NCBI GenBank assembly: GCA_009733575.1
Contig: ML769537.1
Span: forward strand, 101,893 to 165,892
Direction: 5' to 3'
Length of the DNA: 64,000 nt
From: Gymnopus androsaceus JB14
Lineage: Eukaryota; Basidiomycota; Agaricomycetes; Agaricales; Omphalotaceae
A program made the translations under genes and the position numbers. This document shows, one piece after another, positions 8,239 through 63,215 of the stretch (the first letter of the stretch is position 1; every line of letters begins with the position of its first letter). Below the pieces are notes generated by a model. The model was not told the DNA's origin. It saw only the letters and a program-made list of their open reading frames with translations, and searched no databases.

Positions 8239-8281
8239 GGCCTGCTGAGCTAGCCACTGAGAGAATGAATCCCTCCATACT

Positions 8282-14965: not shown

Positions 14966-15250
14966 CTAGATACGAGTAAAACGGAAACCTTTTGAGGCCA
15001 CATACTCACGAATCCAATGAATTGTGTTCGACAAACCGTAGAGCACTACCCCAAAGACAGCAGCAAAGAAACGAGCTACCGACGGCCCCAGTAAGGATTT
15101 GAAAGTACAGGCTAATATTTTCGACATACATCGGGCGTTGGTTGATCCCGAATAATCCATCAATCACTGTTAGTTATTGAGATGGACAGAAACGACATCC
15201 TTGAAAGCAGCAGCGAGGGTAAGGCTATAATAAATGAACTGTAAAATGTA
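14966..15250 (-). pseudogene. RTA1-like fragment (exons 1-3)
   Basis: On the minus strand YSLTLAAAFKDVVS (about 15230-15190) resembles RTA1 exon 1 of the 33.8-45 kb copies (YGLTLAAAS..DV). VFGVVLYGLSNTIHWI (about 15060-15012) matches their exon 3 (IIGIVLYGLSGAIHWI), followed by the same GTGAGT donor. The rest of the gene is missing. It is a fourth, degraded copy. Confidence 0.75.
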
Positions 15251-16229: not shown

Positions 16230-16806
16230 TAACGTCGCTACGCCATCAAATCCACTGACGGAAGATATTGGGAGCCTTGTATCCCAACCTAGACACGGTG
16301 TATGTGTCTTTTTTCGATGAGAGTCGAAGGTGCGCTCACGGAGCCAGTGCGAGGGAGAAATCAGCGGTAAGTACAGATGTAGCATCATGGAACACCGACC
16401 ATATCCTGCCTGTGGCGTATAATACTGTGCCCAATTTCCTCCTGTTCCTGTGCCACACATCGTCGACATGAGTTTGACTTGGTCTTCGAGTCTAGGCGAT
16501 AGGGAGGCGGTTTGCGCGCGGGAGTATGGCGGGCTCGCCCTTTGCAGTGAGTGCGACGTCGTGGTAGCGTGCCTCGGAGTTGAAGCTGCCAGTTTCGACC
16601 AGTAGCTATGTTGAAAAGCAGATGAAAATCCCCGTGTGTCCCTGCGAGGATCGGGTTGGACTGGAATTCGGATTGGAGGAGGTAGAGGTCGATTTGCGAG
16701 AGAACTTGGGCCGTCTGTAACTATGAATGATAGCTTTAGCATAACCAATGTAGGATTAGAGGAACGCACAGTCAGACCCAGCAGCCTGTTTGTTAACTGA
16801 ATCCAT
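16230..16806 (-). pseudogene. DUF6699 pseudogene
   Basis: Starts with MDSVNK at 16806 and aligns with the intact gene at 1.8-2.6 kb, including 5' flank and intron 1. The centre of the domain (the SPWCTIV to AEHN part) is deleted; RLEDQVKLMSTM and GNWAQYYTPQ survive. The acceptor of the last intron is mutated (CTCGC instead of CTTAG), and the stop codon equivalent is changed to GTA GCG. Several indels shift the frame. Confidence 0.8.
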
Positions 16807-20939: not shown

Positions 20940-21060
20940 CCAGTAAATATATAGATAGAGCCTGAACGTCTGAACGTTGAAAACGGAGCCCCTCAGCCTC
21001 AATACTCCCTAGGCCTCTCTCCTCAACATGTGTCTTCTTGGCATTCAGCGCCTGGATCGT
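20940..21060 (-). pseudogene. CCDC124/Lso2 last-exon fragment
   Basis: On the minus strand IQALNAKKTHVEER followed by GAGGCCTAGGGAGTATTGAG matches the end of the CCDC124 gene at 36.8 kb (IQALNAKKAQVEER..REY stop) and some 60-90 bases of its 3' flank (CTATCTATATATTTAC). One glutamate/arginine block is deleted. The surrounding 175-codon ORF (20719-21246) is therefore not a gene. Confidence 0.75.
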
Positions 21061-26329: not shown

Positions 26330-27000
26330 TTTCCCTACATCATGATCATCCTTTGTTGTCGCCTCGAACTCTACCTCGTTCTCTTCCGGGTCCACTTGAT
26401 TGGCAATGCATGGCTTGATAATTCTAAACGCAAGGGAAGCGTTAGTTAAATGCATGGTAATCTCATTAACATGAATACTCCCTGCTTTTCGCTCCTCCCA
26501 ACAGTCCCTACTTCTACACCTCCCGTACGGCAACTAACGCCTTCAACGCAAAAAGTCCGCATAACAACAATCGATCTGGATTTGGAGATCTTGACGGCTG
26601 TAGATTTCAGTATATCTTGCATATCTTGCTCACCGGTTCTGCCCAATAAAGTTCGGGACACAATGTCAAAATTCCTATCTCTTTACGTCCAAGGTCTATC
26701 AAAGCCAGTACCATGCCATCACAATAAAATTATCTATGCGTTCTCGCTCGGATCTTCTCCATACGTCCGTCTGGCGCTTGACTTTCATACGTTGCACTGT
26801 TGCATCATGATATAACTCCATAACTCACTTTGTGTCTTCCATCCACTAGCGGTCCAAGCCATGAAGGAAACACAGAAGTCGGGCGACTCTCCTTCAACTT
26901 TGGCGTCATTCTGAATTTGCGTGATGACGGTCATGAATCCACGATGATTGACCGTGTGTAGCAGACCCCGCCTGCTGTTAATTGATTCCATTAAAGGGCG
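26330..27000 (+). pseudogene. Unknown gene, copy 1 of an inverted duplicate (decayed)
   Basis: The plus strand aligns in pieces with the minus strand of 38720-37940. Shared segments are SPH..NNNRSGF-type exon ends near 26560, CSPVLPNK near 26635, SLYVQGLSKPVP near 26690, and LSFNFGVILNLRDDG near 26890-26935, where this copy then hits a stop (..STMIDRV). The other copy continues with RVQRTLLAVLEGVG. The family is not recognised. The copy is broken by stops and indels. Confidence 0.6.
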
Positions 27001-27507
27001 TTTGACTCCCTCCTAGTCCTGCTCCAAATCTACTTTCTCTATCAGATGCAGCGGTGACCTTCTCATTACTCCGAGACGGGCAAGTTTTTTTTTCAACCTA
27101 TCTGTCTAATTCAACGGAATCGGCGTATTCATCGAATCGTAACTTTTTCGAATACACGGTACTCTCCGACTTGCTGTGCAAGATTTTCAGCTTGTTTGTG
27201 CTTGCAATCACTGCGACGTCAAAGGAAATTTACTTCAATTCTACTTGAGCCATTACGCATATCTCGGATCATCCCTTTTTCGCTTACCACCTACTTAGAA
27301 ATCCTACGCAGCACACTGGAGCTGTGCTAGCTATATAGTATGTATCGAATTTGTCGACGCTACTGAGACTGCAGTAGATCTAATAGTGCTACTATTCAAT
27401 ACGGCGATGGAGGAATACGTTAATCAAGACTCGACTCTATACACACATCGACGATCGCCCAGTGTGCATATGAGTCCCTCTAGGGAGACTAATGGATTGA
27501 ACTTTGC
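27001..27507. other. Intergenic region, nothing recognised
   Basis: ORF 27054-27248 (plus) is unrecognised. Confidence 0.3.
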
Positions 27508-33822: not shown

Positions 33823-35338
33823 CTACTCTTTCGTAGTCGCATAAGGACCTTGATCTCCGGCAGTTTCAACCAACTCGGCATCTACATCTTGTCTAGTAAT
33901 GAACCTACTGGGCCAGACGAAGCAATACAGCGTCATAGGCAATCCATAGAGGAAGCGCATCGAGGAGGTAGAAGTATCCTTCGTGTGTAGCGAGGAAACC
34001 GAAGTATCTGCAAAGGGATTCAGAGTAGTTCGGACTAAAGATGCAGTAAACAGGATGCTTGCTTACCCTCCAGCAAACTCGGCGATACGGAAGGCACATC
34101 GGATGCAGAATACCTATGCACGTCATGCACATAGTAAAATAAAGTATCTTCCAATTCGATATGTCTTGATATCTTGAAGGGGCCCACCACGGAGCTCAAA
34201 GATTCGCTAGTACGAGAGCTGGTACTGATGTTCCAAGCTTTGGGATATTTCGCGCGACTGTGAAGGCGTGCCAGTCAGTACATATATCCCAATTCATCAT
34301 AATTATAACAAAATCAAACAACACGAACACTCTGAATCCAAACGCGATTAACATGGTAGTAAACAGACCGAAAGAGACTAGCTGCAGAATCAATCCAATC
34401 AACGAGATCTAGTGAGATGTACAAGATGTTGAGCAATGCAGCCCGGAGGGGCAGGGGGTTCATTAGCTCACCTTGATTCCAACCGAAGACGACTTTTGGT
34501 TAACTGAAAGTCCTCCACCGCTCGCTTGAATCAAAAACGTGATAACGTCACTCCAGACAAAGAGTTTTGTAATACGGCGGGCGGGAATCAATAAACAGTC
34601 GTCGGCGATGTCTTGTCCGAGGCTGGTGGCTAATCGAGAGAGAAGCATGTAGTCGGTTGCAAGGAAGGCGCAAGGCGAGAGAAGGACAAGCTGAGTAGGA
34701 TAATAGATAGAAGTTGCTTAGCATTAGTAATGGTAGGGCGCTGATGAAGAAAAGGATTTGAGCGAAGGTATTTACATACCAAATCTTCTACGATGTATAC
34801 TCCAAGTGAATAGGGTAAATGAGAGTCGACGATTCGCATTATCAATCCTAGCGTGAAGCCTGTCGAACGAACATGGTTTATTAGTTACCGGTTTTGAAAA
34901 GCATAGGGAGCTAACGCACAAGTCATCCCAATGGTCAAGGTAAGCATGTATCGCTGTCCAATGCGAAAGAAGTCTAAATAATGTGAATATCAGTAAAATG
35001 GAGCGTTTTTGAGGTCGTATAGACTCACGAATCCAATGAATTATGCCGGACAAACCGTAGAGTACTATGCCGATAATAGCAGGCCATATTTTCATAATGA
35101 AACCAGCACTATTGACAGCCACGGTCAGTATTCACATTGTCAGACTAATAATCTATTCGACATACATTGGTTGGTTGAAGTTGGATGCATCCTGAGCGTC
35201 GAGATTCTATGAATCTGTTAGTCATTGAGATTAATTGAAGAATCGCCAAACTCACTGAATAACATCTAAGTCCTTGGAAGTAGCAGCGAGGGTAAAGCCA
35301 TAAAATAAGACCGATAGAAAAAAAATACGTTTGTACAT
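33823..35338 (-). pseudogene. RTA1-like membrane protein, copy A, two frameshifts near the C-terminus
   Basis: Minus strand, ATG at 35338 (MYKRIFFLSVLFYGFTLAA, a signal-like hydrophobic start), about nine exons. RTA1 signatures: PAIIGIVLYGLSGIIHW, IGQRYMLTLTIGMTC, MRIVDSHLPYSLGVYIVED, LATDYMLLSRLATSLGQD, PARRITKLFVWSDVITF, QASGGGLSVNQ, IGLILQLVSFGLFTTML, then YFGFLATHEGYFYLLDALPL. RTA1/RTM1 proteins are 7TM lipid-translocating exporters or sterol-responsive proteins. Against copies B and C, an extra C follows ATTCTG (about 34095) and another occurs in ATTGCCTATG (about 33945), so the last two helices are out of frame. The intact frame would end at 33823 (..YATTKE). It is divergent from CCDC124 with 333 bp between the start codons. 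Confidence 0.8.
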
Positions 35339-35671
35339 GGTAGTTGCAGAGCGACTTGGATATATAGGGGGTTGAATGAATAGGGCAATACAAAAGCTCG
35401 GTTGCCGACTTTTATAATCATTCTACAGAAAGTAGCGAGCTCTTGAAAGAGCTGTGGAACTGCGAGGCAATTTTCCAGTGCATTTTTGAGCTGTGGAAAA
35501 GTAGGGGAAAATTGGCGAGCTCGAGGGTTTGAAGCAGCAGGAGAACATACGAGGCGCAGTCCCGGCCCGCCGCGGATGCAGATGAGATAAGATCAGATCA
35601 GATGTGGATCAGATAACGAGTCAACCTCTTTTGACTCGCGACCACCACCACTGAATTTTGAACAGATAATA
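35339..35671. promoter_or_regulatory. Divergent promoter region shared by RTA1-A and CCDC124
   Basis: The region contains TTATAAA-like boxes for the RTA1 side (GATTATAAAAGTCGG on the minus strand near 35425) that are conserved upstream of copies B and C. The elements CTCGCTACTTTC and GCTCAAAAATGCACTGGAAA also recur there. This conservation marks the probable regulatory part. Confidence 0.55.
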
Positions 35672-36866
35672 ATGGCACCCAAAGGAGGAAACGCAAAGAA
35701 AGAAAGCGGCCGAGCCAAAAAGGCAGAAAACGAGGCCAAGAAGCAGGAGGCTGCGAATGCTGATAAGGTGTGCGCTTTTCCTTGCCTTTCATTCCCTTTA
35801 ATCCTCATTCTACTCGTAGGAAAAGAAAGAATCTCAAGCGTGGGACTCCGGTTCCAAATCCAAGCAATCTGCAGCGGAAGCCAAGGAAGAAAAACGCAAA
35901 GCAGAGTTGGCGCGAAAGGCAGAGAATGCAAGGATTTTGGCAGAGGAGGAGGCTGCTGCGCCTCCAAAGGTCAAGCCTGCACCCAAAGCCGCAGCCAAAA
36001 AAGTCTACTGCTAAAGAGAGCAAACCTGCTGGTCCTGGCGCCCTCGCTGCCGGCGGTGGTCTTGCTGCTAAAGCCGATGATGAGGAAAAGGAAAAGGATG
36101 CTGCTCAAAGCCGAAGAACCTGCAGTCGTCGAAAGCTTCTCCAGCAACGGGCATCGACAACATGCTCGATCTCCTCGATGTCGTAACCGCAAAAGCCGAC
36201 AAGGCCAGTGTGGGGAGTCAGGCAGCGGGTATTGAGAGGCATCCTGAGGTGCGTACTCTACCTACCAAGTATTCTTCTACGTGCTAATCCTGCTCTGTAG
36301 CGCCGATTCAAGGTAAGCTTCACTGTGTAGGGCGTCCCCAGATGTCTGATCTTACCCGATAGGCTGCCTTTGAAGCATATCAAGAACGCGAGCTTCCTAA
36401 TGCTAGGAAGGAGGTATGTTTCGAATCCTGATACATATACCCGATACTAACTTTGGGTTTAGCACCCGGGCCTTAGGTTACAGCAATACAAGGTCCGTAT
36501 TCACTTTTTAGCCGACTGGTGTTGACTGACCGTGATAATAGGACTTGTTGTACAAGCAATTCCAAAAGTCGCCTGAGAATCCGTACGTCTGTTCTTTGCC
36601 TTGTCTTTTCTTTTTGCATTCCTGTTCCTTTCGATTCACCTCATTTCTCTCAATGCCCCTCCCTCGTTTCTGCTTGGGCTTTGGTTTGGTTTCCCTTGGC
36701 TTCGTTTCGCGTGTGCAACCTACGGATACAACCCTAACTTTCCTTACATAGATTCAACCAGACAACCATTTCCTACGATGCCTCCAAGGACGACAAGATC
36801 CAGGCGCTGAATGCCAAGAAGGCACAGGTTGAGGAGAGGTTGAGAGAGAGGCCTAGGGAATATTGA
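35672..36866 (+). pseudogene. CCDC124/Lso2-type ribosome-associated coiled-coil protein with apparent one-base insertions
   Basis: Seven exons from ATG 35672 (MAPKGGNAKKESGRAKKAEN) to TGA 36866. The N-terminal half is a Lys/Ala/Glu-rich coiled coil. The conserved C-terminal domain reads GIDNMLDLLDVVTA, RHPE|RRFK|AAFEAYQERELP, HPGLRLQQYK|DLLYKQFQKSPENP|FNQTTISYDASKDDKIQALN and ..REY. This is the CCDC124/Lso2 family, which binds ribosomes during recovery from quiescence in yeast and mammals and is normally single-copy. Introns are short and canonical. In exon 2 the frame needs correction at three places: six A instead of five at about 35995-36000 (AAAKKS), CAAAGCC at about 36108, and AGCAACGGG at about 36150. 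All three look like one extra A. Either the locus is dead or the assembly has homopolymer errors. Confidence 0.8.
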
Positions 36867-37939
36867 AGAGCTCCAAGGGCGATTCGGACTTCTTTGGTCT
36901 TCGACGCAGGCTATCTATATATTTACGGGACCCATGCATACGACGGTGCATCAGACTCGAGACTCTGGGGATGCGAGGGAGATGGATCGCCGAAGCAGCT
37001 GCAGGGATTCGGATTCGGACTTGGACTCAGACTTGGAGGCAGAGAATGCAATGGTGCGGGCAATGGGTCATTTGGCATGCGCGGGCGGCACACACTGAGC
37101 AGTATCTTGTAATGGCAGATGGCGGACGCTATATCGCGGGATGGTTTTGGCTGGAGCATGGCATCCTCGGGTGAGGGAAAGGCTCTGCAGACTCGGAGGG
37201 TGGTCATTGGTATGGGGATTGGGATTTGTGTCAAGAGGCATTGCTGTGGAAATCAAAACCGAAACCTTACATGTGTATTTACTACTAAGTAGTCCGAATG
37301 GAGTGGTTCAAGTGTAACAGGGCGCTTAATCCAACGATTAACTCCTCGAATAGCGGTGAGTTTTGCGGACTCGCTATCTTCTGCTTCTCAGGTCATTCTG
37401 TTGAGCAGTGGGCCGGATGGAAGGAAAGGATTGAGCTAAATAAAGGAATGAATATGTATAATCTCAGTGGACGTAGAACATTCACGAATATACCTAAATA
37501 AAGGAATGAATATGTATACTAAGGTATAATCAGTAAAAGAAGTAACAAAGTGAAAAGAATACTCACATCTCAGTACTAGTGGACGTAGAACACTGAGATG
37601 TGCTGGCATCGAAAAGTATCAAAGTAACTATTGGATTAAGTAGTAATGCGAATGGAAAGGAAGCAAAATAGTATGTACATAGGTCAAAGCTGTAAGTAAA
37701 TGACCGTATATGGAACGATACTTCTAACACACTCCGACTGCGATACTATGATACTCATCTCCTCAAGACCGTCTCCGCCTCTGCGACTTGCCCTCAGCTT
37801 GAAGTTAATTTACTTTGACGTCGTGCTGACCGCACATCCAGAGCTGTCAGAGTAAGCTGAAAATCTTACACAGGAAGTCAGAGTACCGTATATTCGAAAA
37901 ACTAGATATTACGATGATGAATCGTCGGGTTCCGTTTAA
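36867..37939. other. Downstream flank of CCDC124; no supported gene
   Basis: The first 150 bases are GA-rich (GGATTCGGATTCGGACTTGG) and are partly shared with the 20.9-kb relic. A short duplicated phrase (AATAAAGGAATGAATATGTATA) occurs at 37439 and 37498. Confidence 0.4.
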
Positions 37940-38720
37940 TTGCCACTGAGTCTGAACAGCCTGCACGATCTTCGAGCGGGCTTAGGAGGAGGTCCAACAC
38001 CCTCTAATACAGCAAGCAGGGTTCGCTGCACACGGATAATCATCGTAGCGTCATCACGCAAATTCAGAATGACGCCAAAGTCGAAGGTGAGTCACCCGAT
38101 TTCTGTGAGCCAGTGGATGCAAGAACAACACACAAGAGAATGTATTAACAGGGACGGTCAATATGTGTATTATGAGACCATATCATGATACAACAGCGCA
38201 GCGTGAGGCCAAGGAAAGTAAAGGTACCAGATCGACGGAAGTAGAGCGAAAAAATGGGGAGTTCTATTGTCTGGTACAAAAATGGTTAAGCCCATTGGGC
38301 ACTGGCTTTGATAAACCTTGGACGTAAATAGATATGAATTTTCGACAGTACGCCGGAACTACAAGCCTGTTATTGGGCAGAACCGGTGAGCAAGATATAC
38401 TGGGCAGTGGGAGCACCAGAAAGCATGATGGACTTACCCATTGTGGCGCAATTGAACATCCTCTTATCGATTGGGTGATTGCCCTTTCACCCGTCAAACC
38501 TTCAACCCAGAAAGATGATTAGCCATGCGGACTTTTCTTGAAGGCGTTAAATGCCTTACGGTAGGTGTAACGACCGTTGGGAGGAAGGACTTCGATGAGA
38601 TGCGAAGAGCAGGAATGAATAAATGAATATTTGATTATCAAGCCACCAATAAGTGGACCTAGAAGAGAGCGAGGCACTCAGTTTCCATGAGGTCATGATG
38701 ATGAATACGGAGCCATTCCA
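37940..38720 (-). pseudogene. Unknown gene, copy 2 of an inverted duplicate
   Basis: Minus-strand pieces: LIEVLPPNGRYTYRKAFNAF then KKSPH (38600-38527), CSPVLPN.. and KFISIYVQGLSKPVP (38400-38300), LTFDFGVILNLRDDATMI and RVQRTLLAVLEGVGPPP with a stop at 37938-37940. It matches 26330-27000 in opposite orientation and is the better preserved copy. It ends with a basic tail, KPARRSCRLFRLSGN. Family not recognised; exon borders uncertain. Confidence 0.55.
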
Positions 38721-38878
38721 AATTTCCAGTAGCTGTCTAATAATAAGACAGCTACGTAGAGCTATATGCAGATGACGCAAACGGACACTGGCAGTATTTA
38801 AGCAAGAACGGAGGCGTCTTTTCTATCCAACATCCAAAGCCACCAACCAACCAACCACTACCTTTATACATCATCACT
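38721..38878 (+). promoter_or_regulatory. Promoter of the small 70-residue gene
   Basis: A TATA-like AGTATTTAAGC at about 38793 and a CCAACCAACCAACCAC pyrimidine/CA-rich leader at 38840-38860 precede the ATG at 38879. This is a usual layout for strongly expressed small fungal genes. Confidence 0.45.
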
Positions 38879-39191
38879 ATGGGTCTCGAGAATGATTTCA
38901 AGAGTGCTGAGGGTGCCATTGACGGTCAGAGGTAGAAATTATTCCTTGGAAGGCATGTGCAGAGCGCTGACCACAACCAGTTCCAATCAGGAAACTCAAA
39001 GCAACCCTGGCGGGGACGCAAAGAAGGACACTTTTGTAGACTCTGGTAAGTTTGTATTGCTTGAAGCATTGACTGCAACTCATCTGGTGTAATGTGAAGC
39101 CGTCGATCAGTTTGCAAGCAAAGAGGGAGCTCCTGCCGGTGCTGATCCTGAGATAAACAACGTTGTTAATGACGAGGTCAACAAGTTTTAA
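38879..39191 (+). CDS. Small acidic conserved fungal protein (about 70 aa)
   Basis: Three exons: MGLENDFKSAEGAIDGQ (from 38879), intron GTAGAA..CCAG, SSNQETQSNPGGDAKKD and TFVDS, intron GTAAGT..GAAG, AVDQFASKEGAPAGADPEIN and NVVNDEVNKF with stop at 39191. All phases agree. No signal peptide and no cysteine. The pattern (repeated 'VxxxVNxF' and 'KEGxPxxADxxINxVV') is that of small basidiomycete proteins of unknown role. Missed by single-frame ORF calling because no exon exceeds 110 bases. Confidence 0.7.
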
Positions 39192-39524
39192 GCTTGGACA
39201 TTTACTGTACTCGAATTTGTAAAGCTCACTCAGAAAACTTAAAATACTGTATGAATTTTAAATCCCCTTCAATCGCAGCTTGTCCAACAGACTCAGATGG
39301 TTACACCAGATTGAAAGACCCTTTGGACAGACCTGGCAAGTAGAAGTGTTACTGTGTAAATAATGGGGTCAAGTGCTTTTCGTTCCGTACTTGTTCCTAC
39401 ACCATTCCGACAACTGTTTTTTTGCAACCGTAGGGCTGGTGCAGTTACTAGTTTCATATGTTTATCCAGTTTACCTTCTTCCTCTTCCTAACTAGGCATA
39501 GCACGCTCATAGACTCGGAATTGG
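39192..39524. other. Spacer before the tandem array
   Basis: No gene or repeat recognised. Confidence 0.35.
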
Positions 39525-39690
39525 TCAAATGCAAATCACAAATTCGAATGTGTGGCCTTTCGGAACAGGACCACCGTCCGCTGGCGACTTGCCAAATTCT
39601 TCAGATGTGACATTGGTCATATATTGTGGCAAACTGTGGAGGACGATCTGAGGCGAGTCAGTATGGCGTTGATTATTCGGATATGAGTTG
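39525..39690 (-). pseudogene. APH-like kinase, 5' fragment
   Basis: The minus strand reads SPQIVLHSLPQYMTNVTSEE, related to the starts of the APH copies at 42.6 and 45.5 kb (MTGSPQIPVLLQS.., MAVSPQISVLPHS..). The start codon is ATA here. Nothing of the kinase core remains. Confidence 0.65.
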
Positions 39691-39694
39691 AAGT

Positions 39695-39890
39695 CTAGTT
39701 TATGCGAGGGATTCTTTCTTTTCCTATGAGTAGAATAAAGATTAAAGGGAATAAAAGGCAAGAAAGATCCCATAGACCTTTTCAGCATTCGGAGCTTCCC
39801 TCGTTTTCAGCATTTCTAGCTCGCCTGGTTTCTTTCTTTGCGGTGGATTCCATTATTATCTTTGCAAAAAGATTGAGTGGTCAAGTAATC
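39695..39890 (-). pseudogene. CCDC124 exon 1-2 relic in array unit 1
   Basis: The reverse complement contains the stretch around the first CCDC124 intron (GCTCCGAATGCTGAAAAGG.., TTTCTTGCCTTTTATTCCCT, CTACTCATAGGAAAAGAAAG), aligning with 35700-35835. The start codon and most of exon 1 are degraded. Confidence 0.75.
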
Positions 39891-40123
39891 TTATCCACAT
39901 CGTATCTCATCCATTTGAAACTCCGCGCCTCATCTCTGCTTCAACACCACCTCGCTACTTTTCGCTACTTTTCTCCGCAGCTCAAAAATGCACTGGAAAC
40001 GCACCTCGCTGCTCAAGTTCCACAGCTCTTCCAAGAGCTCGCTACTTTCTATACGATGATTATAAAAAGTCGGCGACCGAGCTTTGTATTGCCTTATTCA
40101 CTCTTCAACCCCTTATATCCGCC

Positions 40124-41662
40124 ATGTTCAAACGAATTTCCTTTTTATCGGTCTTGTTGTATGGCCTTACCCTCGCTGCTGCCTCCAATGGCTCAGATGT
40201 CATTTCAGTGAGTTTGGCGATTCTTCAATTCATCTCAATAATTGATTGCTTTACTAGAATCTCGATGCTCGGGATACAACCAACACCAAGAACCAACGCC
40301 CGGTGTATGTCGAAAAGATCAGTCAGTCTGTAATGCGAATACTAACTGGAGCTGTCGATAGTGCTGGTTTCATTATGAAAACATGGCCTGCCATTATCGG
40401 GATAGTACTCTACGGCTTGTCCGGTGCAATCCATTGGATTCGTGAGTATGAGTATGACCTCCAAAACGCTCCGTTTTACTCATTCATTCTCTAGACTTCT
40501 TTCGCATCGGGCAGCGGTACATGCTTACCTTGACTATTGGCATGACCTGTGGGTTAGTTTCCTGTGCTTTTTGAAATGGGTAGCTAAACTATGTTATCCA
40601 ACAGGCTTCACGTTCGGATTGATCATGCGCGTCGTCGACTCTCATTCACCCTATTCACTTGGAATATACATCGTAGAAGATTTCGTATGTACCCTCCTTC
40701 CTTCCTTCCTTTCCCTTTACTTCAACCGCACCCCGCTAAACACTTCTTCTCATCTAGTTTGTCCTGCTCTCACCCTGTGCCTTCCTCGCTACCGAGTACA
40801 TGCTCCTCTCTCGATTAGCCACCAGCCTCGGCCAAGACATCGCTGACGACTGTTTATTAATTCCTGCCCGCCGCATCACAAAACTCTTTGTCTGGAGTGA
40901 TGTTATCACGTTTTGGATTCAAGCGAGCGGTGGAGGACTTTCTGTGAACCAGAAGTTGTCTTCGGTTGGAACCAAGGTAAGACCTTGATTCTGCCTCCTG
41001 CCCTCCCAGTTGTGTTTACTCAACATCTACAACTCACTACATAGATCGCGATGGTTGGATTGATTCTGCAACTAGTCTCTTTCGCCCTTTTTACTATCAT
41101 GCTCATCGCGTTTGGGTTCAGAGTGTTCGTGTTGTTTGATTCTTGTAATATTACGGTGACTGACGCGCTTTCATCAGTCGCGCAAAATATCCCTCCACTT
41201 GGAACATCCGTGCAAGCTCACGTACTAGCGAATCTTTGACCTCCGTAGTGGGCCCCTTCAAGATATCAAGCATATCGAATTGGAAAATCTTATACTTTAC
41301 TATGTGCTTGACGTGCATAGGTGTTCTGATTCGATGCGTCTTTCGTATTGCTGAGTTTGCTGGAGGGTAAGCAAGCATCCTTTTCACTTACTGTAACTGT
41401 TTGTCCTACGCTTATACTAATCTACAGATACTTTGGGTTCCTGGCTACGCACGAAGGATACTTCTACCTCCTCGATGCACTTCCTCTGTGGATCGCTATG
41501 ACGCTGTATTGCTTCGTCTGGCCGAGTCGGTTCATTAATAGACCAGAAGCAGACTTTACGGCGAGTCGTGGTACAGTGGTTGGAGTACCGTTGATTGAAC
41601 AAGGAAAAAACCAGGAAGGTCGTATGCGAGACAGTAGGTACCTGGCTCGCTATAAACATTGA
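40124..41662 (+). CDS. RTA1-like seven-transmembrane protein, copy B
   Basis: Plus strand. Exon 1 is 40124-40207 (MFKRISFLSVLLYGLTLAAA, hydrophobic leader), exon 2 40258-40304 (NLDARDTTNTKNQRP), exon 3 40362-40441 (AGFIMKTWPAIIGIVLYG..), exon 4 from 40495 (FFRIGQRYMLTLTIGMTC). Then come FTFGLIMRVVDSHSPYSLGI, FVLLSPCAFLATEYMLLSRL, PARRITKLFVWSDVITFWIQ, GLILQLVSFALFTIML, FGFRVFVFRAKYPSTWN, ILYFTMCLTCIGVLIRCVFR, IAEFAGGYFGFLATHEG and LPLWIAMTLYCFVWPSR. The C-terminal tail (..EQGKNQEGRMRDSRYLARYKH) differs from copies A and C because the tail was replaced. The intron after MTC lacks a GT donor that keeps frame in any copy. Expected role: plasma-membrane lipid-translocating or stress-response protein. 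Confidence 0.8.
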
Positions 41663-41689
41663 TACAAGTGATGTATCATATCGTGGATC

Positions 41690-42604
41690 GAATTGATCTC
41701 CTCTTGGCGTCGTTTCACCGGGAAGACACAGTCGAGAATCATTGACCACCCAGGCGTCATAAAATCTGGATCATGCATGCGCGAATATTCCCTGAACGAG
41801 GATAAAATCGAGAGTTTTCCCAGTCAGGGATAGCTGTGATTCTGTTATTATCATCTGGGTCAACCACGATATCCTTGGGTAGGAGGTCGCCGTGTGTAAA
41901 GCAAATACCACTATCGCAGCAAAGGTGAGTGAGCAGGAGTTTGCGCGTGACTAACGTACTCTATCTCTACACATATAGAGCTGAAGAGGAGATCGCGAAA
42001 AAAAATCGTGAAATTCTGTGGGCCCCTTGCACACGTTTGTTGGCTGAAGATACGGAGGCACCAGCAAGGAGCGAAGTGCTTCTCCAGTTACGGAACAAAC
42101 AATATCCGATGGTATTTTTCTCATGCACTGTATCAGATCCTTGAGGTTTGCACCAACGGCTGCTAGGGTCTCGGACTGAGCTGATCAACGACAGTTGCGA
42201 CTCGAGGGACACCTTTGGCTCTTCCGTGCAGATATACTACACTTCGGGGGTGGGGTGGCATCACCCAGGGACTCCCTAGAGCAAAGAAAAAAGAAAAAGA
42301 AGTCGGATTCGAATAGGAAATTACCGGAACGATGAGGAAGTCAACACTGACCTATGATGTGGGTTTTCCGGAAAGCAATGACTTTCGGCAGAGGGAGGCC
42401 TTTTCCCCCGAAAATGACATGCATAAAACCTCTTCCGCAAGACACCTACCCCCGCACTTCAGGACTATACCTGGTCCAATTCAAACCACCGTCCGCAGAC
42501 GACCTTTGCGAATCTTCTCAGGAATCACAGGGGAAATTGGCGATATATTGTGGCAAGTCGAGATGAGACTGTAGAAGGACAGGAATCTGTGGCGAGCCAG
42601 TCAT
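41690..42604 (-). pseudogene. Aminoglycoside phosphotransferase (APH)-like kinase, decayed, array unit 1
   Basis: Minus strand, possible start at 42604 (MTGSPQIPVLLQSHLD). Recognisable pieces: VVYLHGRAKGVPRVATVV, PSDIVCSVTGEALRSLLVPP, the Brenner-type catalytic motif THGDLLPKDIVVD at about 41905-41865, and the metal-binding ITAIPDWENSRFYP (DWE) at about 41835-41795. Stops and indels occur, for example a one-base deletion turning SPKTLAA into SPRP-stop near 42160. APH-like proteins of fungi phosphorylate small hydroxylated substrates; substrate unknown here. Confidence 0.75.
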
Positions 42605-42639
42605 CGCGTTGGTTACAACTTCAAGACAGATGTGGGGGT

Positions 42640-42795
42640 AAGTCAAGTTTATGCGAGGGACTCTTTCTTTTTCTACGAATAGAATGAAGATTAAAGGGAA
42701 TGAAAGGCAAGAAAGATCGCAAACACCTTTTCAGCATTCGCAGCTTCCCTCGTTTTCTGCCTTTTTAGCTCGCCCGCTTTCTTGCTTCGAGACCA
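42640..42795 (-). pseudogene. CCDC124 exon 1-2 relic in array unit 2
   Basis: The reverse complement contains GCGAGCTAAAAAGGCAGAAA, AGCTGCGAATGCTGAAAAGG and the intron and exon 2 start (TTCATTCCCTTTAATCTTCA, AGAAAAAGAAAGAG). It is closer to the intact locus (35700-35835) than the unit 1 relic. Confidence 0.75.
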
Positions 42796-43117
42796 CCTCG
42801 CTACTTTTCGCTACTTTTCTCCGCAGCTCAAAAACGCACTGGAAAAAGCACCTCGCTGCTCAAGTTCCACATCTCTTTCAATAGCTCTCTACTTCCGCCT
42901 CTAGGATGATTATAAAAGTCGCCGGTCAGCAATAGTGCTTTGTATTGCTACTTTTCTCCGCAGCTCAAAATGCACCGGAAAAGCACCTCGCTGCTCAAGT
43001 TCCACAGTAGTTCTTTCAAGAGCTCGCTACTTTCGCCTCTAGGATGATTATAAAAGTCGGAAACCGAGCTTTACATTCCTTTGTTCACTTCCACCCTCTA
43101 TGTATCTGAGTCGCTCC

Positions 43118-44618
43118 ATGTTCAAACGAATTTCTTTTTTATCGGTCTTGTTGTATGGCCTTACCCTCGCTGCTGCCTCCAAGGGCTTGGATGTCACTTC
43201 AGTGAGTTTGGCGATTCCTCAATTCATCTCAATAGCCAGAATTGATTGCTTTACTAGAATCTCGATGCTCGGGATACAACCAACGCCGAGAACCAACGCC
43301 CGATGTATGTCGAAAAGATCAGTTAGTCTGTAATGTGAATACTAACTGGGACTGTCGATAGTGCTGGTTTCATTATGAAAATATGGCCTGCTGTTATTGG
43401 GATAATACTCTACGGCTTGTCCGGTGCAATTCATTGGATTCGTGAGTATAAGTATATGTCCTCAAAAACACTTCGTTTTATTTATTCATTTCTAGACTTC
43501 TTTCGCACTGGGCAGCGGTACATGCTTACCTTGACTATTGGCATGACTTGTGCGCTGGTTTCTTTCCCTCTTCAAAACGAGTAGCTAAATCATGTTGTTC
43601 AACGGGCTTCACGTTCGGATTGATCATGCGAATTGTCGACTCTCATTCACCCTATTCAGTCGCAGTATATGTCATAGAACTTGCAGTATGTACATTCCTT
43701 CCTTAATTCTTTCCTTTCCCTTTACTTCAACCGCGCCCTGCTAAGCACTTTCTATTATTTAGTTTGTCCTCCTCTCACCTTGCGCCTTCCTTGCTACCGA
43801 GTACATGCTCCTCTCTCGATTAGCCACCAGCCTCGGCCAAGACATCGCTGATGACTGTTTATTGATTCCTGCCCGCCGTATCACAAAATTCTTTGTCTGG
43901 AGCGACGTTATCACGTTTTGGATTCAAGCGGGCGGTGGAGCACTTTCTGTCAACCTAAAGTTGTCTTTGGTCGGAACAAAGGTAAGACTTTGATTCTGCC
44001 TCCTGCCCCTCCCAGTTGCGTTGCTCAACATCTATAACTCACTTCATAGATCGTGATAGTTGGATTGATTCTACAACTAGTCTCTTTCGCCCTTTTTACT
44101 ATCATGCTTATCGTGTTTGGGTTCAGAGTGTTTGTGTTGTTTGATTCTTGTAATAATTACGGCGACTGACGTGCTTTCATCAGTCGCGCAAAACATCCCT
44201 CCGCTTGGAACATCCGTACCAGCTCTCGTACTAGCGAATCTTTGACCTCCGTAGTGGGCCCCTTCAAAATATCAAGCATATCGAATTGGAAGATCCTCTA
44301 CTTTACTATGTGCTTGACATGCATAGGTGTTCTGATTCGATGTGCCTTTCGTATTGCTGAGTTTACTGGAGGGTGAGCAAACATCCTTTTCACTTACTGC
44401 AACTGTTTGGCTTACGCTTATACGTACTCCACAGATACTTTGGGTTCCTGGCTACACACGAAGGATACTTCTACCTCCTCGATGCACTTCCTCTGTGGAT
44501 CGCTATGACGCTGTATTGCTTTGTCTGGCCGAGTCGGTTCATTAATAGACAAGATTTAGATGCTGAGTTGGTTGAACAAGCGGGTGCTCAAGGTCTCTAT
44601 GCGAATACGAAAGAGTAG
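43118..44618 (+). CDS. RTA1-like seven-transmembrane protein, copy C
   Basis: Same architecture as copy B: MFKRISFLSVLLYGLTLAAA (43118), NLDARDTTNAENQRPM, GIILYGLSGAIHWI, TGQRYMLTLTIGMTC, LIMRIVDSHSPYSVAVYVIE, ATEYMLLSRLATSLGQD, RRITKFFVWSDVITFWIQ, FVFRAKHPSAWNIR, IRCAFRIAEFTGG, LPLWIAMTLYCFVWPSR, ending ELVEQAGAQGLYANTKE at 44618, the same tail as copy A. The C-terminal exons are in frame. The acceptor before FTFGLIMR reads CAACGGG and has lost its AG, so splicing at this intron (about 43560-43605) may fail. It is otherwise the most complete copy. Confidence 0.75.
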
Positions 44619-44921
44619 AAAGGGGCAAGGAAGGGGTGAGGTTGCGAGTAGAGATAGATTTAGATTTAGATTCAGGTAGGGGTAGGGGTTTCTACTAATA
44701 TTATGTAGCATCGGACAATATTGCTGTTTTCATAAAAGTTAGCCGCCCTTGACATTTCACTCTCATGGACTTTTTTTTGTGCTCCGAGCATTTAACACTC
44801 TTTGGTCATATCTCAGTGAATACTGTAGCTATTACCTTTTAATATAGTGCATTGTAGTCATCTAGTCAAGCCTGAGGTGCAACTCTAAAAACATTGAAGA
44901 TCCGAGCATGTTAATTTTTTT
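44619..44921. other. RTA1-C 3' flank
   Basis: The first 80 bases (GATTTAGATTTAGATTCAGG) are shared in reverse with the 3' flank of copy A near 33780. No gene. Confidence 0.5.
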
Positions 44922-45505
44922 TTACAGTAAATGAAATTCTGTGGGCCCCTTAAACACATTTTTTGGCTGAAGATACGGAGGTACCAGTAACGAGCGAAGT
45001 GGTTTTCCAGTCATGGAACAAACAACATCAGATGGTATTTCGCTCATGTACTGTATCAGAGCCTTGAGGTTTGTGCCAATGGCTGCTAGGGTTTTGGGAC
45101 TGAGCTGCTCAACAACAGTTGCGAGAGGGACGCCCCGGCTTCTCCCATGCAGATATACCACACTTCGGGGGGCGGGTTGGCAACACCCAGGGCTCTCTAG
45201 AGTAAAAAAAAAATAAGTCAGATTCGAATGGGACATTACCGGAACGATGAGGAAGTCGGCACTGACCTATGAAGTGGGCTTCCCGGGAAAGCAATGACTT
45301 TTGGCACTGGCAGGCCTTTTTCCCTCGCAAATGACATGCGTAAAACCTCTTCCGCGACACACCTACCTCCAAAATTCAGGACTACAGTCTACACTTGGTC
45401 CAATTCGAACCACCGTCCGCAGACGACCTTTGCGAAACTCTTCGGGAACGACAAAGGGGAAATCGGTGAGTGTGGAAGGACAGAAATCTGAGGCGAGACA
45501 GCCAT
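44922..45505 (-). pseudogene. APH-like kinase N-terminal half, array unit 2
   Basis: ATG at 45505 (MAVSPQISVLPHSPIS). Then EEFRKGRLRTVVRIGPSVDC, VAEEVLRMSFAREKGLPVPK and VIAFPGSPLHR, the usual N-lobe pattern of APH kinases. After an intron comes VYLHGRSRGVPLATVVEQLS, PKTLAAIGTNLKALIQYMSE and LQPKNVFKGPTEFH. The sequence then stops, and the catalytic HGDL and DWE region is absent. The N-lobe also needs a frame change near 45395. It is a truncated relic. Confidence 0.75.
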
Positions 45506-45900
45506 GGCGTTGAGCAAGAGGAATGCAGAATCAAAATCGAACAGGACCGATCAAACGATTCCCGTTTTTAGTAGGGCAAACACTGCACTATGGTCTATAG
45601 GAGCCCTTCGGTACTCATCTGTGACACCTAGCTTACCTTGGATGATAGGGGCGAAGACTAGGTACAAACGTCGAGAACATATTTACTCACGTACGAAAAG
45701 GAAGCCGTTCGAGAACTTTCTGACTGATTCTCTTGCTCCGCTGCTGTAATTACAGTACATAATTTGGTTCGTCTTTGTTGTTGTTTCTTGGACCGCTTAT
45801 AGGACTGATCGTTTACTGCTTGTTATCCGGTTCATGATCACAAATCAAGCAAGTTTTATTTCGAGAAATAAAAGGTACAAATACTATATTATGGAAATGT

Positions 45901-46577
45901 TCAGAAGACGATGTTGAAGAGCTGCTCATTCGAACCATCACAGTTGACGACTTTCAATGCATCTTGAGCGGTAGCACCAACCGCCACACAAAGACCGTCG
46001 TTGCTGTGAGGAGAGATGGTGCAGGAGGAACCAGCAGAATTTCCAGGAGTGGTGTTCGTCCCGCAAGTCTGGCAGGCGATATCGAAGAGTTGAGCTCTGT
46101 AACAGATGGTTAATGCATAAGACCAGGTATGATATAAGCAAGTAGAACTGACGCTTCGTTTCCACTATTCGAGGCAGTTTCGAAGACAAGCTCGTTTCCA
46201 ACGGTAGTAACGGCCAAATTATCGTTGTCGACATCCCTACAAAGCAAAACGGTATTACTGTCAGTTGACCCGCCACCTTCGCAAAAGCGAACAAAATTAT
46301 AGCAAACGCACCTGATGGTAAAGCTAGTCGGGACTTGACCGTTCTGCTGGACGTGGAAGTCAGGAGCAGCGAGTCCACGGAAAGACTCTCCGATGAGAAC
46401 GTCACCAATTTGAGGTGTGTTCTCGACTCCCCACTCCAAGCCGGACACCAGGCTCTCGATAGAAACACCGGCACCTTGGGCATTCGGAGTGCAAGTTGCA
46501 CGACGGAAAGGGGTAGCAGATACGCCAGAACTGGCGAGCATGACTGCAACAGAGACGACGGTGAACAAGGAAAACAT
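45901..46577 (-). CDS. Small secreted protein
   Basis: Minus strand, ATG at 46577. The signal peptide MFSLFTVVSVAVMLASSGVS is followed by TPFRRATC. The mature part reads GAGVSIESLVSGLEWGVEN, PDFHVQQNGQVPTSFTIR, intron GTGCGT..TGTAG, DVDNDNLAVTTVGNELVFET, a short intron, QLFDIACQTCGTNTTPGN, SSCTISPHSNDGLCVAVGAT, and ..VNCDGSNEQLFNIVF with stop at 45901. It is one of a set of extracellular basidiomycete proteins with regularly spaced short repeats and cysteine pairs that may form a beta-trefoil. No catalytic motif. The second intron starts CGTCAG rather than GT, so that border is uncertain. Confidence 0.75.
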
Positions 46578-47690
46578 TTCGGTATAGAAAATTAGGACGC
46601 GAAGAGGTCTTTCCGGCTGAACAATCGATCTGAAGGTTCTGGGACACGGAAAACTGAAGAAAAGCTCTAGCTTTTATACGGGCTCAAGCATCGCATTGTG
46701 ACCGAAAGAAATGGGCTTTCGAGTTCTCCGCTTCCTGTGGACGCCCTTAGGCTAGGGTTCTCAGAAAAGCTTAGGCGAAACTGCACAATAGCAGCCATCG
46801 GTTTCAATGAGCTTAGAACCCGACCGGTGAATCGTGAGTAGCGTTAAAACGTTCGGGAGTTCGAATATCAATTCTGAGGTGCGGGATTTAATCCAGCTAG
46901 TAAGACAAAAGGAGCATATAGAAATTTGCCAAACTAGGATTAGTTTGAACATCGAGGAGAACCCGGAAGACGCTATACTGGACGTAGGCGGGTGCCCTAT
47001 TCTTCCGTCATCCCGAGTCAGCTTGAAGTGTATGTGGTATTTGAGAGTATCCGGGCCAAGGAACTGGTGATGGACGTCTTCACCTAAAATGGCTAGAATG
47101 GCTGGCAGTGGACTCTTCGTGACCGCGACGTCGATGCAGAATTGTTTAACTATAGCACTGAACATCGACTCGAAGTTTCCTGAGCGTATGAGACCAAATA
47201 TACAAAAAGAGATGACCATGAACAATCCGAACTATGCGGTCCATAATGGTTAGATTAATACTTAGCCCGGTATTGTCACTGCATTTACAGAAAGAACGAG
47301 CGTCTCGTCAATGACGTGTATTTGAGTACTACGCGCAGTGTCCGGAACATGTGCCACCACAAAGCTCAGCAAGTACTATTAGCGGCAATCCAAGCCCGCT
47401 TTTCCTCGACCAAGAGCTGGGTTGACCTGGGTCAGCTGATTGAATATCATATCCAAATGAAGCCCACGGCAGGTTCTTCCAGTTGCAACTCCATGGGTAA
47501 CGCGAAATAAAAATGGCGGGTAAAGTACCGCCCATCCACCAAGCTGTTCAGAAGAAGAGTAGATCCGTCTGGCAGTGTTGTGTCTCAATGACATTCAGAA
47601 CCGACAAATACGCCAACTCTACGTGAAGTGTTCTATTACCCCGGCCGTAGCGGAATCGGCGAAAATGAAGTTTCGTTTGGGATGGGGGTG
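46578..47690. other. Possible coding remnants, not recognised
   Basis: The minus ORF 47225-46761 (first ATG 47219) reads FCIFGLIRSGNFESMFSAIV, LGPDTLKYHIHFKLTRDDG and ends CYCAVSPKLF. Its composition is plausible for a protein but no family is recognised. ORFs at 47594-47329 are equally unknown. No splice model was convincing. Confidence 0.3.
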
Positions 47691-49752
47691 AGGTGCCCAG
47701 CTGAATGTGATGGATATTTCGTTGAGATTAGGTTGAGATGATGATGAAGGCTGCAGAGAAGAAATAAGTAATGACTAGGCTCGGTGTCGTATGGCATAGC
47801 TTGCTTTGGCATTGCCTTTTCTAAACTAACTTCTCTGATTCGATCAACTTGTACATTTGCTTTTTCTCTTGATCTCTCTCTCTCTCCAGATATTAGTAGA
47901 GAAATAATGACTTAATTGTAGAGAATTTGCATCACCTGTCTTCAAAATCAGGAAGACTCAAGGCAAGTGCAATTCGACTGATTCAAGTTGAAGTTTCAGC
48001 ACCAATCCTCATGTGCATTAGTAATTACAAATATCTGGTATCTAAGCCAATTGATCTAAGGATCAATTTGCATTCTCAGTCTAACTTCGGCCCAAATATT
48101 TGAATTTCATGCCACATTCAATATGCTAGTACTGCATGTATCTGGCAAGAGCCAAGAGTGTTGGAATGTGACCTCATAATGGGTCATCCAGATGTAGCAT
48201 TACTGTTTCTGGTAGTTAACCCCTAATTGTATCTTTGCCTTCTACCACATCAGCACTCATCCAAACATCACCACCCATTAACTTTGACAAAGAGGCTACG
48301 AGTGTTGAGTATAGATGTAGTAGTAGTTCATCCACTGTGTGATCTATAGCAACCATCTGTCCTGTCAAATTCTTTCCTTCCAGTAATCATGAATGTGGTT
48401 TACAATGTTATAAGTAATGTAGTTTTCCAGCGCTCTTTGGGCACTCCTACAAGCATCTACTTACTTGATTCCATAACATTCGAGCAATTGTAGATTCAAC
48501 ATGCTGCTTGCTTCTTACTATACATAATGTTGTGAGTTGTCATCTTGCTTGTAAGGTTTTTCCTCTGGCATAATTATTTTTCCCACACTTGTCCCACACT
48601 TGTCCCACACGCTTTTTGCAAATATAGCCAAACACCTTGCTCATCAGTAATGGGCAAATCAACCCTGGGTTTATTTTCCTGCTTTCCAGTTTGACACTTC
48701 AAAGCAACCACATACTTCCAAATTTTATTGCTGCTGTTTATTACATTCTTACTTCCTTCCTTCCTTTGCCTTTTTGACTTTTAAAACTATCTCTCAATGC
48801 TATGATGCCAGGTGAGCTTGTGTCATAAGGAAAAAAATCAACTCAATTTTTGGATTCTTAGTGAGCTCTTTTCCTTCTTGGATCTCCAGTGCTGAACCAC
48901 CTTCATCTATCTCATTCAGCTCATTTGTAGGCAGTGGATACTTGGCAACCTTTCTGACCATATTATTCCCAACACAGCTTCATTTCAGCACTAGCATCTG
49001 AGCTCCTGTTCAGCAACATGCTCAATAACAATTGCCACACTACCAGCATTCCTTCACTCTCCAATAAATAATGCAATGAGTCTTTCTTTGGATGATTCTT
49101 TGGCTTCCTCCAACAGTGTTCCGGGCATTGCAACATGAACATGGGGATAAATCTGTAAACTGGGTCTTTGTTGGGTAATTGTTGCACCAGACTATGGGTT
49201 GGCTATTGAGATCTACTGAACATGAACAATCACATTGGATGAGCAGCGGTCACAGTGAACATTGTCAATTGTCCAGTCTTTCCAGTAATTACCGTAAGTC
49301 TATCTCTGATACTGATTTCCAAAGCATCAGCAGGTGTATGCAATTCACTTTTCATTGCCTCGCAAAAAAAAAAACACACTTGATTTGTTCTATACTATCC
49401 CTATCCTATATTACCTTTCCTTTGTTGTTCTTGTTCCTCATTCTTTTTGGCTATTATTTACTGATTCTTAGTGCACTCCTTCAATTTTTCTACTGGATAT
49501 ACTACCTCATGTCTAATTTTATTGCCACTTGCATAATAGTTGGCCAAGCCAATCCCTGTTATATCCATGCAAACTGAGGCATTGGCTTGGTAACTATCAG
49601 CCAAATACATTTTGTTCATACTCAGTCTATGTCTTGCTTTATTGTTTCTCTACCATATGGCTCTTTCGTCTTTTATTTATATTAGTTATACTTGCTGGCA
49701 GACTTGGCGCCACTTCTTATGGTTTCTACTTACTTGGGTCTGACAGGCTCTA
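47691..49752. other. AT-rich transposon-derived region without a supported gene
   Basis: Contains a CT run at about 47870-47890, three tandem copies of TCCCACACTTG near 48585-48612, and an A-run at 49363-49374. No polyprotein fragment was recognised. Confidence 0.35.
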
Positions 49753-62975: not shown

Positions 62976-63215
62976 TTGCATGATGATGCATCGGTTTACA
63001 GCGTCTGCAGAACACGTGTCTCCTCGGTCGCTCAGGAGTCAGCTCTTTCCCGGGCCGACTCGGAATGTGAAGTATTTAGTACGCTTTGTCACTGGGATAC
63101 GTGGCTGAGTAAGTTCCAATTGTGATTTATCATCCTTGGCCAAGTTACGAGGTAATGGGGGACTCTATATATATATATTATATATGACGATCGAAAAAGA
63201 AGCCACTGTTTCAGC

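What the first reader, a model, noticed from the sequence alone, without database searches (positions are those of the whole stretch)
33823..45510. Divergent RTA1/CCDC124 pair copied into a tandem RTA1-promoter-APH array while the CCDC124 half decays
The parent locus has RTA1 (minus) and CCDC124 (plus) 333 bp apart. Two further units, 39.7-42.6 and 42.6-45.5 kb, repeat the RTA1 gene, the shared promoter and only the beginning of CCDC124, and add a convergent APH-like gene. In every unit RTA1 is the best preserved part and the conserved housekeeping partner is cut off after its second exon. This suggests selection for extra RTA1 dosage (lipid or sterol stress, drug export), or passive array growth with the boundary fixed inside CCDC124.
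Basis: partly seen in the sequence, partly recalled or inferred. Interest (0 to 1): 0.75.

Follow-up and report, generated by a model that had tools for sequence, protein, structure and literature searches.

The report
Old RTA1 gene array in mushroom
A litter-rotting mushroom carries three neighbouring copies of a membrane-protein gene linked in other fungi to chemical tolerance; the extra copies dragged along a dead scrap of the next gene, and the RTA1 copies look selectively constrained, a real but fairly ordinary case of gene-family growth.

Summary
The array is real. By the names of its public proteins the window is from the mushroom Gymnopus androsaceus JB14. RTA1 copy A (minus) and CCDC124 (plus) start 333 bp apart. 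Two inverted units of about 2.9-3.0 kb carry RTA1 copies B and C, RTA1's own promoter, and a CCDC124 scrap ending about 14-24 bp into exon 2. A second contig, apparently the other haplotype, carries both units at 98% identity, so an assembly artefact is unlikely.

RTA1 is constrained (lineage dN/dS: A 0.17, B 0.18, C 0.42, the last with an upper bound of 1.01). Between units, RTA1 exons (92%) outlast introns and flanks (85%). The 'APH gene' is only a relic. C is a mosaic: B-like body, A-like 3' end; it lacks the AG acceptor of intron 4 on both contigs. A shows four one-base frame changes, possibly assembly noise.

CCDC124 looks like a passenger: in three close relatives the best RTA1 and CCDC124 hits lie on different contigs. 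Best reading: old segmental duplication, exchange and gene conversion, with RTA1 kept by purifying selection. Dosage selection is possible but unshown. The layout resembles Candida parapsilosis RTA3 arrays, but these copies are diverged.

The parts
33823..35338 (-). RTA1 copy A (9 exons); frame disturbed by four one-base differences relative to B; public model P0017 (299 aa) avoids them
35339..35671 (.). 333-bp divergent intergenic region of the A locus, holding the RTA1 proximal promoter element
35672..36866 (+). CCDC124; no other copy found at DNA level in the genome apart from the scraps described here; conserved ends, frame shifts in the exon-2 linker (public model P0121, 216 aa, PF22048 + PF06244)
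39570..39680 (-). scrap of the APH-relic 5' side left of unit B (trace of a lost unit or of the founding junction)
39710..39842 (-). CCDC124 scrap of unit B: first bases of exon 2, intron 1, part of exon 1, with an 11-bp deletion shared with C
39964..40123 (+). RTA1-B promoter with the element CTCTTYCAAGAGCTCGCTACT and a TATA-like box
40124..41662 (+). RTA1 copy B, open frame (355 aa with the donor that homologues support), C-terminal tail of the kind seen in outside relatives
41758..42611 (-). APH-like relic of unit B, convergent with RTA1-B; only the frame 41758-41960 is recognised by Pfam (20.8 bits, below cut-off), 42009-42611 is the part repeated in unit C
42659..42787 (-). CCDC124 scrap of unit C, start codon region gone
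42810..43059 (+). RTA1-C promoter, internally duplicated (period 138, 1.8 copies), so the promoter element occurs twice (the second with 2 mismatches)
43118..44618 (+). RTA1 copy C, 9 exons; intron 4 ends in GG instead of AG on both contigs; A-like C-terminal tail
44554..44719 (+). stretch of C with A-type sequence: shared 30-nt deletion in the tail plus 3' UTR
44720..44919 (.). single terminal repeat of a dispersed element whose copies often lie in inverted pairs; occupies the place of the APH-relic 3' half
44932..45512 (-). truncated counterpart of the APH-like relic, identified only by its similarity to unit B

Best explanation
This is an old, lineage-specific expansion of one RTA1 (lipid-translocating-exporter family, PF04479) gene. 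Step 1 (inferred from the scraps): a segment holding RTA1, its own promoter and the 5' end of the neighbouring CCDC124 gene was copied in inverted orientation a few kb away, beside an APH-like gene. The break fell just inside CCDC124 exon 2. Step 2 (supported by shared junctions): that composite unit was doubled head to tail, probably by unequal exchange, giving units B and C, after the CCDC124 scrap had already lost 11 bp. Step 3 (supported by site patterns): the 3' end of C was overwritten by sequence of A's type, by gene conversion or exchange, and a transposon end now sits where half of the APH relic was. Step 4 (shown for sequence, inferred for function): RTA1 coding sequence stayed under purifying selection while the passengers decayed. 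The copies most likely add membrane capacity for tolerating lipid-like or sterol-like toxins met in litter and in contact with grazers or competitors. That function is carried over from the family and was not tested here.
For: Anatomy and junctions. Open frames and family. Purifying selection: pairwise dN/dS A-B 0.17, A-C 0.22, B-C 0.29; lineage values A 0.17 (bootstrap 0.09-0.30), B 0.18 (0.06-0.44), C 0.42 (0.20-1.01) over 309 of 322 codons (counting method, not maximum likelihood). Exons 92.3% identical between B and C against introns 85.1%, CCDC124 scrap 85.3%, APH relic 84.9%. Both units on a second contig, 98.2% over window 37727-45000. Mosaic of C: 43 sites group B+C against A, all up to 41479. 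Of 22 sites grouping A+C against B, 10 lie in 41558-41623, Fisher p 3.6e-6. Promoter element: all 7 genome-wide matches (up to 2 mismatches) lie at RTA1 copies of this clade, control 0. Published role of the family: an RTA1-like gene 20.4-fold up under nematode grazing in Coprinopsis (table in PMC4704728; the order of a sentence there would give 28); RTA3 copy number and miltefosine tolerance in C. parapsilosis (PMC9600344).
Against: A carries four one-base frame changes and C has a GG acceptor at intron 4, so only B is free of visible damage on this contig, and B's counterpart on C139 has two one-base losses in the coding body. The bootstrap range of C's dN/dS just reaches 1. A protein tree of public gene models groups A with C rather than B with C (97/95), against the DNA tree of the body (B+C 100/99). 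The models differ where frames are disturbed and share the A/C tail. Twelve A+C sites lie outside the tail. No expression, no reads and no other strain were available.
Confidence: 0.66

Rival explanations
1. Passive birth-and-death array: the copies arose by chance recombination and are on their way out; low dN/dS reflects mainly the time before damage, and no benefit of extra RTA1 exists.
For: A frame changes and C splice-acceptor loss; C's lineage dN/dS is the highest, upper bootstrap bound 1.01; two of three RTA1 copies on C147 look broken; a further RTA1 relic lies at 14975-15244.
Against: C and its counterpart on C139 show 7 synonymous to 4 non-synonymous differences over 322 codons; B is open and constrained (0.18); exons outlast introns and flanks.
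Confidence: 0.22
2. Selection for dosage: the array is an adaptive amplification of RTA1 like the RTA3 arrays of Candida parapsilosis, kept because more transporter is useful.
For: Unit size 2.9-3.0 kb and a break inside the upstream neighbour match that case (2.3-4.5 kb units where the RTA3 ORF is included; 4 of 16 patterns enter MAK16; PMC9600344); promoter element duplicated again in front of C; RTA1 exons conserved.
Against: Copies are diverged (B-C dS 0.18), not near-identical; both contigs carry the same two units, so no copy-number variation was seen; C and A carry damage.
Confidence: 0.2
3. Different history: A and C are true sisters and the body of B was later homogenised with C, so B would be the older unit and A and C the younger pair.
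For: A and C share the 30-nt tail deletion and similar 3' UTR (138 of 164 aligned sites against 320 of 435 in introns, p 0.007); the protein tree groups A with C (97/95).
Against: B and C share the CCDC124 11-bp deletion, the APH junction and 43 body sites against 12 outside the tail for A+C; DNA tree of 304 of 319 body codons groups B with C 100/99.
Confidence: 0.15
4. Assembly artefact: haplotypes or repeats wrongly joined in tandem.
For: A second, diverged contig of the same region is held, and the frame noise at locus A lies where no second contig was found.
Against: C139 carries the same two units and junctions at 98.2%; B and C differ by 11%, far more than the two contigs; the passenger scraps are internally consistent.
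Confidence: 0.03

Closest known systems
RTA3 copy-number arrays of Candida parapsilosis (PMC9600344, 12 of 43 passages seen)
   Same: [quoted passage not shown]
   Different: There the copies vary between isolates from about 4 to about 50 and correlate with miltefosine tolerance. Here there are two diverged units (dS 0.18), seen on both available contigs, with no phenotype known.
RTA1 / lipid-translocating exporter family (PF04479) in mushrooms
   Same: B and C score far above the Pfam cut-off; the best matches outside Gymnopus are Lentinula, Rhodocollybia and Collybiopsis proteins and two unnamed metagenome proteins (64-70% identity).
   Different: A local expansion, so far seen only in Gymnopus, with a mosaic copy and passenger gene scraps.
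Birth-and-death tandem gene families with gene conversion (general knowledge)
   Same: Head-to-tail duplication, relics, signs of conversion between copies, other RTA1-domain sets in the same genome (C147, C165).
   Different: The founding copy was inverted and kept the 5' end of an unrelated gene as a marker of origin.

Membership tests
RTA1 family (PF04479) | Pfam RTA1 profile above its cut-off | tested here: met
   B 164.1 bits, C 157.2 bits, cut-off 24; exon stretches of A are over the cut-off in the genome scan
RTA1 family (PF04479) | seven membrane helices | tested here: met
   AlphaFold2 model of P0001, mean pLDDT 81.4, seven long helices between residues 51 and 307; a prediction, not an experiment
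RTA1 family (PF04479) | tolerance to 7-aminocholesterol or related lipids | not testable with these tools
   needs an assay
CCDC124 (PF06244 + PF22048) | both domains present at locus A | tested here: met
   P0121: PF06244 84.9 bits (cut-off 24), PF22048 52.4 bits (cut-off 27)
CCDC124 (PF06244 + PF22048) | C-terminal domain present in units B and C | tested here: not met
   only part of exon 1, intron 1 and the first bases of exon 2 align
APH phosphotransferase (PF01636) | profile score above cut-off | tested here: not met
   best frame 20.8 bits against 23.2, E 0.00037; seven other frames of the two relics no match
RTA3-type adaptive copy-number array | tandem units of 2.3-4.5 kb with breaks in the upstream neighbour | tested here: met
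   start-to-start spacing 2.85-3.0 kb, break in CCDC124; reference values from PMC9600344
RTA3-type adaptive copy-number array | near-identical recent copies | tested here: not met
   B-C 89% overall, dS 0.18
RTA3-type adaptive copy-number array | copy number varies between isolates | not testable with these tools
   one strain held; its two contigs both carry two units
microbial rhodopsin (considered because of the fold match) | retinal-binding lysine in the last helix (recalled as defining) | tested here: not met
   helix-7 span lacks lysine in 37 of 38 aligned RTA1 proteins; the one lysine is at the helix start

The most novel reading that the evidence does not exclude
RTA-family genes are a recurrent target of adaptive tandem amplification across fungi. 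This array would be a long-settled basidiomycete counterpart of the Candida RTA3 arrays, in which amplification was followed by promoter duplication in front of C and by RTA1-to-RTA1 exchange that swaps C-terminal tails between copies, giving a small set of differently tailed, co-regulated 7-helix proteins.
Probability: 0.2. Interest if true: 0.5.

Novelty: new member of a known kind. Interest (0 to 1): 0.3.

Why it matters
If RTA-family genes are repeatedly amplified with breaks inside the upstream neighbour in such distant fungi, the family may be a general dosage knob for membrane toxin tolerance. This locus gives an older example with a built-in marker (the CCDC124 scrap) of where the copy came from. 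It is also a good case of likely conversion between inverted paralogues. Otherwise it is ordinary gene-family turnover.

Tried and rejected
Considered and rejected or set aside: (a) assembly artefact (C139 carries both units). (b) A conserved bidirectional RTA1/CCDC124 promoter. In Lentinula aciculospora, Collybiopsis luxurians and Collybiopsis confluens, whose best RTA1 and CCDC124 hits are single-member clusters on one contig each, the contigs have different lengths. For Rhodocollybia butyracea RTA1 is listed on two contigs with only the longest shown, so it is undecided. The other Lentinula hits are multi-member clusters and were not used. The lists show the best 120 only, and a paralogue next to CCDC124 is not excluded. 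The C113 paralogue shares about 120-140 bp upstream of RTA1, but no CCDC124 similarity was found there. (c) A functional APH partner. (d) Another source for the divergent intron 4-exon 5 patch of C: a DNA search of the genome found only A, B, C, the C139 copies of B and C, and C113 (6 matches). (e) A PF06244 genome scan found nothing, but it also missed the known A gene, whose exons are tiny, so it says nothing. (f) Relatives by sequence in the PDB: none at E up to 1. Foldseek: no PDB match at E <= 0.001, best E 0.036 to a GPCR. A claim that this locus is undescribed rests only in an open-licence library; none of the papers listed was about it by title or abstract start.

Results against my reading: the protein tree of public models puts A with C; C's dN/dS range reaches 1. 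The exon-7 donor used lies 9 nt downstream of the one that homologues support; this was corrected for the tree but not for the dN/dS figures (3 codons). In the tail, B becomes hard to align after about 41614, so the last few A+C sites there are less sure, and indel counts there are not interpreted beyond the shared 30-nt gap. The colinearity of C139 at its far end rests on a multi-copy stretch. A tblastn of RTA1-B and the C147 protein against the C165 stretch found nothing; that pair is RTA1 only by the Pfam scan.

Full report
WHAT AND WHERE. A protein search with RTA1-B returned public proteins of Gymnopus androsaceus JB14 on a contig of 165,892 bases, which is where the window ends. The genome held here has 83.3 Mb in 934 contigs and the window is C155:101893-165892. 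RTA1-A, B and C correspond to public models P0017, P0001 and P0002; CCDC124 is P0121.

OBSERVATION. Self-comparison gives B to C 89.0% (1613 columns), C to A inverted 78.9% (1845) and B to A inverted 76.7% (2003). The A-locus start codons are 333 bp apart. B and C read as nine exons with open frames and score 164.1 and 157.2 bits on PF04479. With the exon-7 donor that homologues support, B is 355 aa. All introns of B are GT-AG. In C, intron 4 ends in GG both here and on C139; its other introns are GT-AG. The public C model needs a GT-GG intron there, and the public model of the C139 copy skips part of exon 5 instead (read). Which splice is used is unknown.

NOT AN ARTEFACT. C139:1-7268 matches window 37727-45000 at 98.2%, including both units. 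The first 1,874 bases of C139 are identical to C155 in the genome search. C139 stays in order up to about window 49.8 kb, with an extra copy of the 45.0-48.7 kb block. Further on, C139:44699-45674 matches window 63003-64000 at 96%, but that stretch has several copies in the genome, so it is weak evidence. I read C139 as the other haplotype of a dikaryon, which is an inference. It starts right of locus A, so A and CCDC124 have no second copy in hand. B and its C139 counterpart differ by 0 synonymous and 1 non-synonymous change in 320 codons; C and its counterpart by 7 and 4 in 322.

FRAMES. Relative to B, A has four one-base differences in coding exons (one in exon 1, two in exon 8, one in exon 9) and one in-frame loss of 6 bases; the C139 copy of B has two one-base losses; C and its counterpart have none in the body. 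CCDC124-A has no other DNA-level copy in the genome apart from the array scraps and a short last-exon relic at 21.0 kb. Its ends are conserved but its linker changes frame: the linker motif seen in four relatives is present in another frame. Since CCDC124 is widely conserved (1308 proteins at E <= 0.001 among 2777 candidates), local consensus errors are a plausible cause for both genes. Recent decay is not excluded. A shows no in-frame stop in the 316 codons compared with B, and its lineage dN/dS is 0.17.

SELECTION. Over the 309 of 322 body codons shared by A, B, C, the C139 copy of C, and C113, dN/dS is A-B 0.17, A-C 0.22, B-C 0.29; lineage values are A 0.17 (0.09-0.30), B 0.18 (0.06-0.44), C 0.42 (0.20-1.01) (NG86-type counts with 400 codon bootstraps). 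Between B and C, exons keep 885 of 959 sites (92.3%), introns 400 of 470 (85.1%), the CCDC124 scrap 139 of 163 (85.3%) and the APH relic 484 of 570 (84.9%). So RTA1 coding sequence was conserved while passengers drifted.

PASSENGERS. The CCDC124 homology in B and C covers the first 14-24 bp of exon 2, intron 1 and part of exon 1, with an 11-bp exon-1 deletion shared by both. The scrap was therefore probably already broken before B and C parted. The APH-like relic is recognised only in one 67-residue frame of unit B (20.8 bits, cut-off 23.2), and seven other frames of the two relics gave nothing. In unit C the counterpart of that half is missing and a 200-bp terminal repeat of a dispersed element sits there; 31 of the 48 rows are matches to that repeat, often in inverted pairs. 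Left of unit B there is another scrap of the APH-relic 5' side, a trace of a lost unit or of the founding junction.

MOSAIC. With C113 as outgroup, 43 sites group B+C, 22 group A+C and 13 group A+B. The B+C sites run from 40002 to 41479; 10 of the 22 A+C sites lie in 41558-41623 (Fisher p 3.6e-6). A and C share a 30-nt deletion in the tail, while B, C113 and outside relatives have the longer tail. A and C agree at 138 of 164 tail plus 3' UTR sites against 320 of 435 intron sites (p 0.007). I read this as A-type sequence copied into C. The DNA tree of 304 of 319 codons groups B with C (100/99); the protein tree of 19 public models groups A with C (97/95), which I put down to the shared tail and to models bent around frame changes.

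PROMOTER AND NEIGHBOUR. The element CTCTTYCAAGAGCTCGCTACT with up to 2 mismatches has 7 matches in the genome: A, B, the C139 copy of B, C (two, from a 138-bp promoter duplication), the C139 copy of C, and C113; the reversed-pattern control gave 0. It lies just upstream of RTA1 and occurs at C113, where no CCDC124 similarity was found. In three close relatives with single-contig hits (L. aciculospora, C. luxurians, C. confluens) RTA1 and CCDC124 are on different contigs; Rhodocollybia is undecided. The close pairing with CCDC124 is thus probably special to this lineage, and CCDC124 a passenger of the copying.

FUNCTION. The RTA1-B model has seven helices. The family is described as lipid-translocating exporters or regulators (passages of PMC9600344; abstract of PMC9697666). 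In Coprinopsis cinerea an RTA1-like gene is 20.4-fold up under nematode grazing (three passages of PMC4704728), and T. reesei RTA1-domain genes rise in mixed culture with A. niger (one passage of PMC5476202). A role in toxin tolerance is therefore the most likely reason for retention, but it is inference.

COMPARISON. The nearest published case I saw is the RTA3 array set of Candida parapsilosis: 16 patterns, units 2.3-4.5 kb where the ORF is included, 4 running into MAK16, one promoter-only, correlated with miltefosine tolerance (12 of 43 passages of PMC9600344). The present array looks alike in layout but is old and diverged. The same genome has other RTA1-domain sets: three copies on C147, two of which look broken, and a pair on C165 lying in blocks 91% identical.

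VERDICT. A real, old RTA1 expansion by segmental duplication, exchange and conversion, with purifying selection on the coding copies. Dosage selection is possible and untested. Interest 0.3.

Noticed in passing
window 14975-15244 (-) and 21002-21057 (-): An older RTA1 relic and a relic of the last CCDC124 exon lie upstream in the same window, so this neighbourhood may have shed such copies before.
   Followed up: partly
L009/L010 (C139) 7711-11588 and 12935-16624, matching window 45018-48679: C139 carries the 45.0-48.7 kb block twice, so the two contigs differ structurally just downstream of the array.
   Followed up: partly
window 44720-44919: A 200-bp terminal repeat of a dispersed element; copies elsewhere often lie in inverted pairs 0.5-13 kb apart, as expected for long terminal inverted repeats.
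   Followed up: partly
[not shown]
   Followed up: partly
L012 (C147:127500-137499) and L017 (C165:14000-23999): Two further RTA1-domain sets: three copies of which two look broken, and a pair in blocks 91% identical about 3.36 kb apart.
   Followed up: partly
window 42810-43059: The RTA1-C promoter is internally duplicated (period 138), doubling the promoter element in front of C; the C139 copy of C also has the repeat by BLAST.
   Followed up: partly
public proteins P0003 and P0004: They look like the C139 copies of B and C but are listed on a contig of 173,428 bases, while C139 here has 169,426; the held copy may be trimmed.
   Followed up: no
window 26515-27238 (-) and 37799-38569 (+): A second diverged inverted repeat pair (65-76% identity in pieces) of unknown content flanks the A locus.
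   Followed up: no
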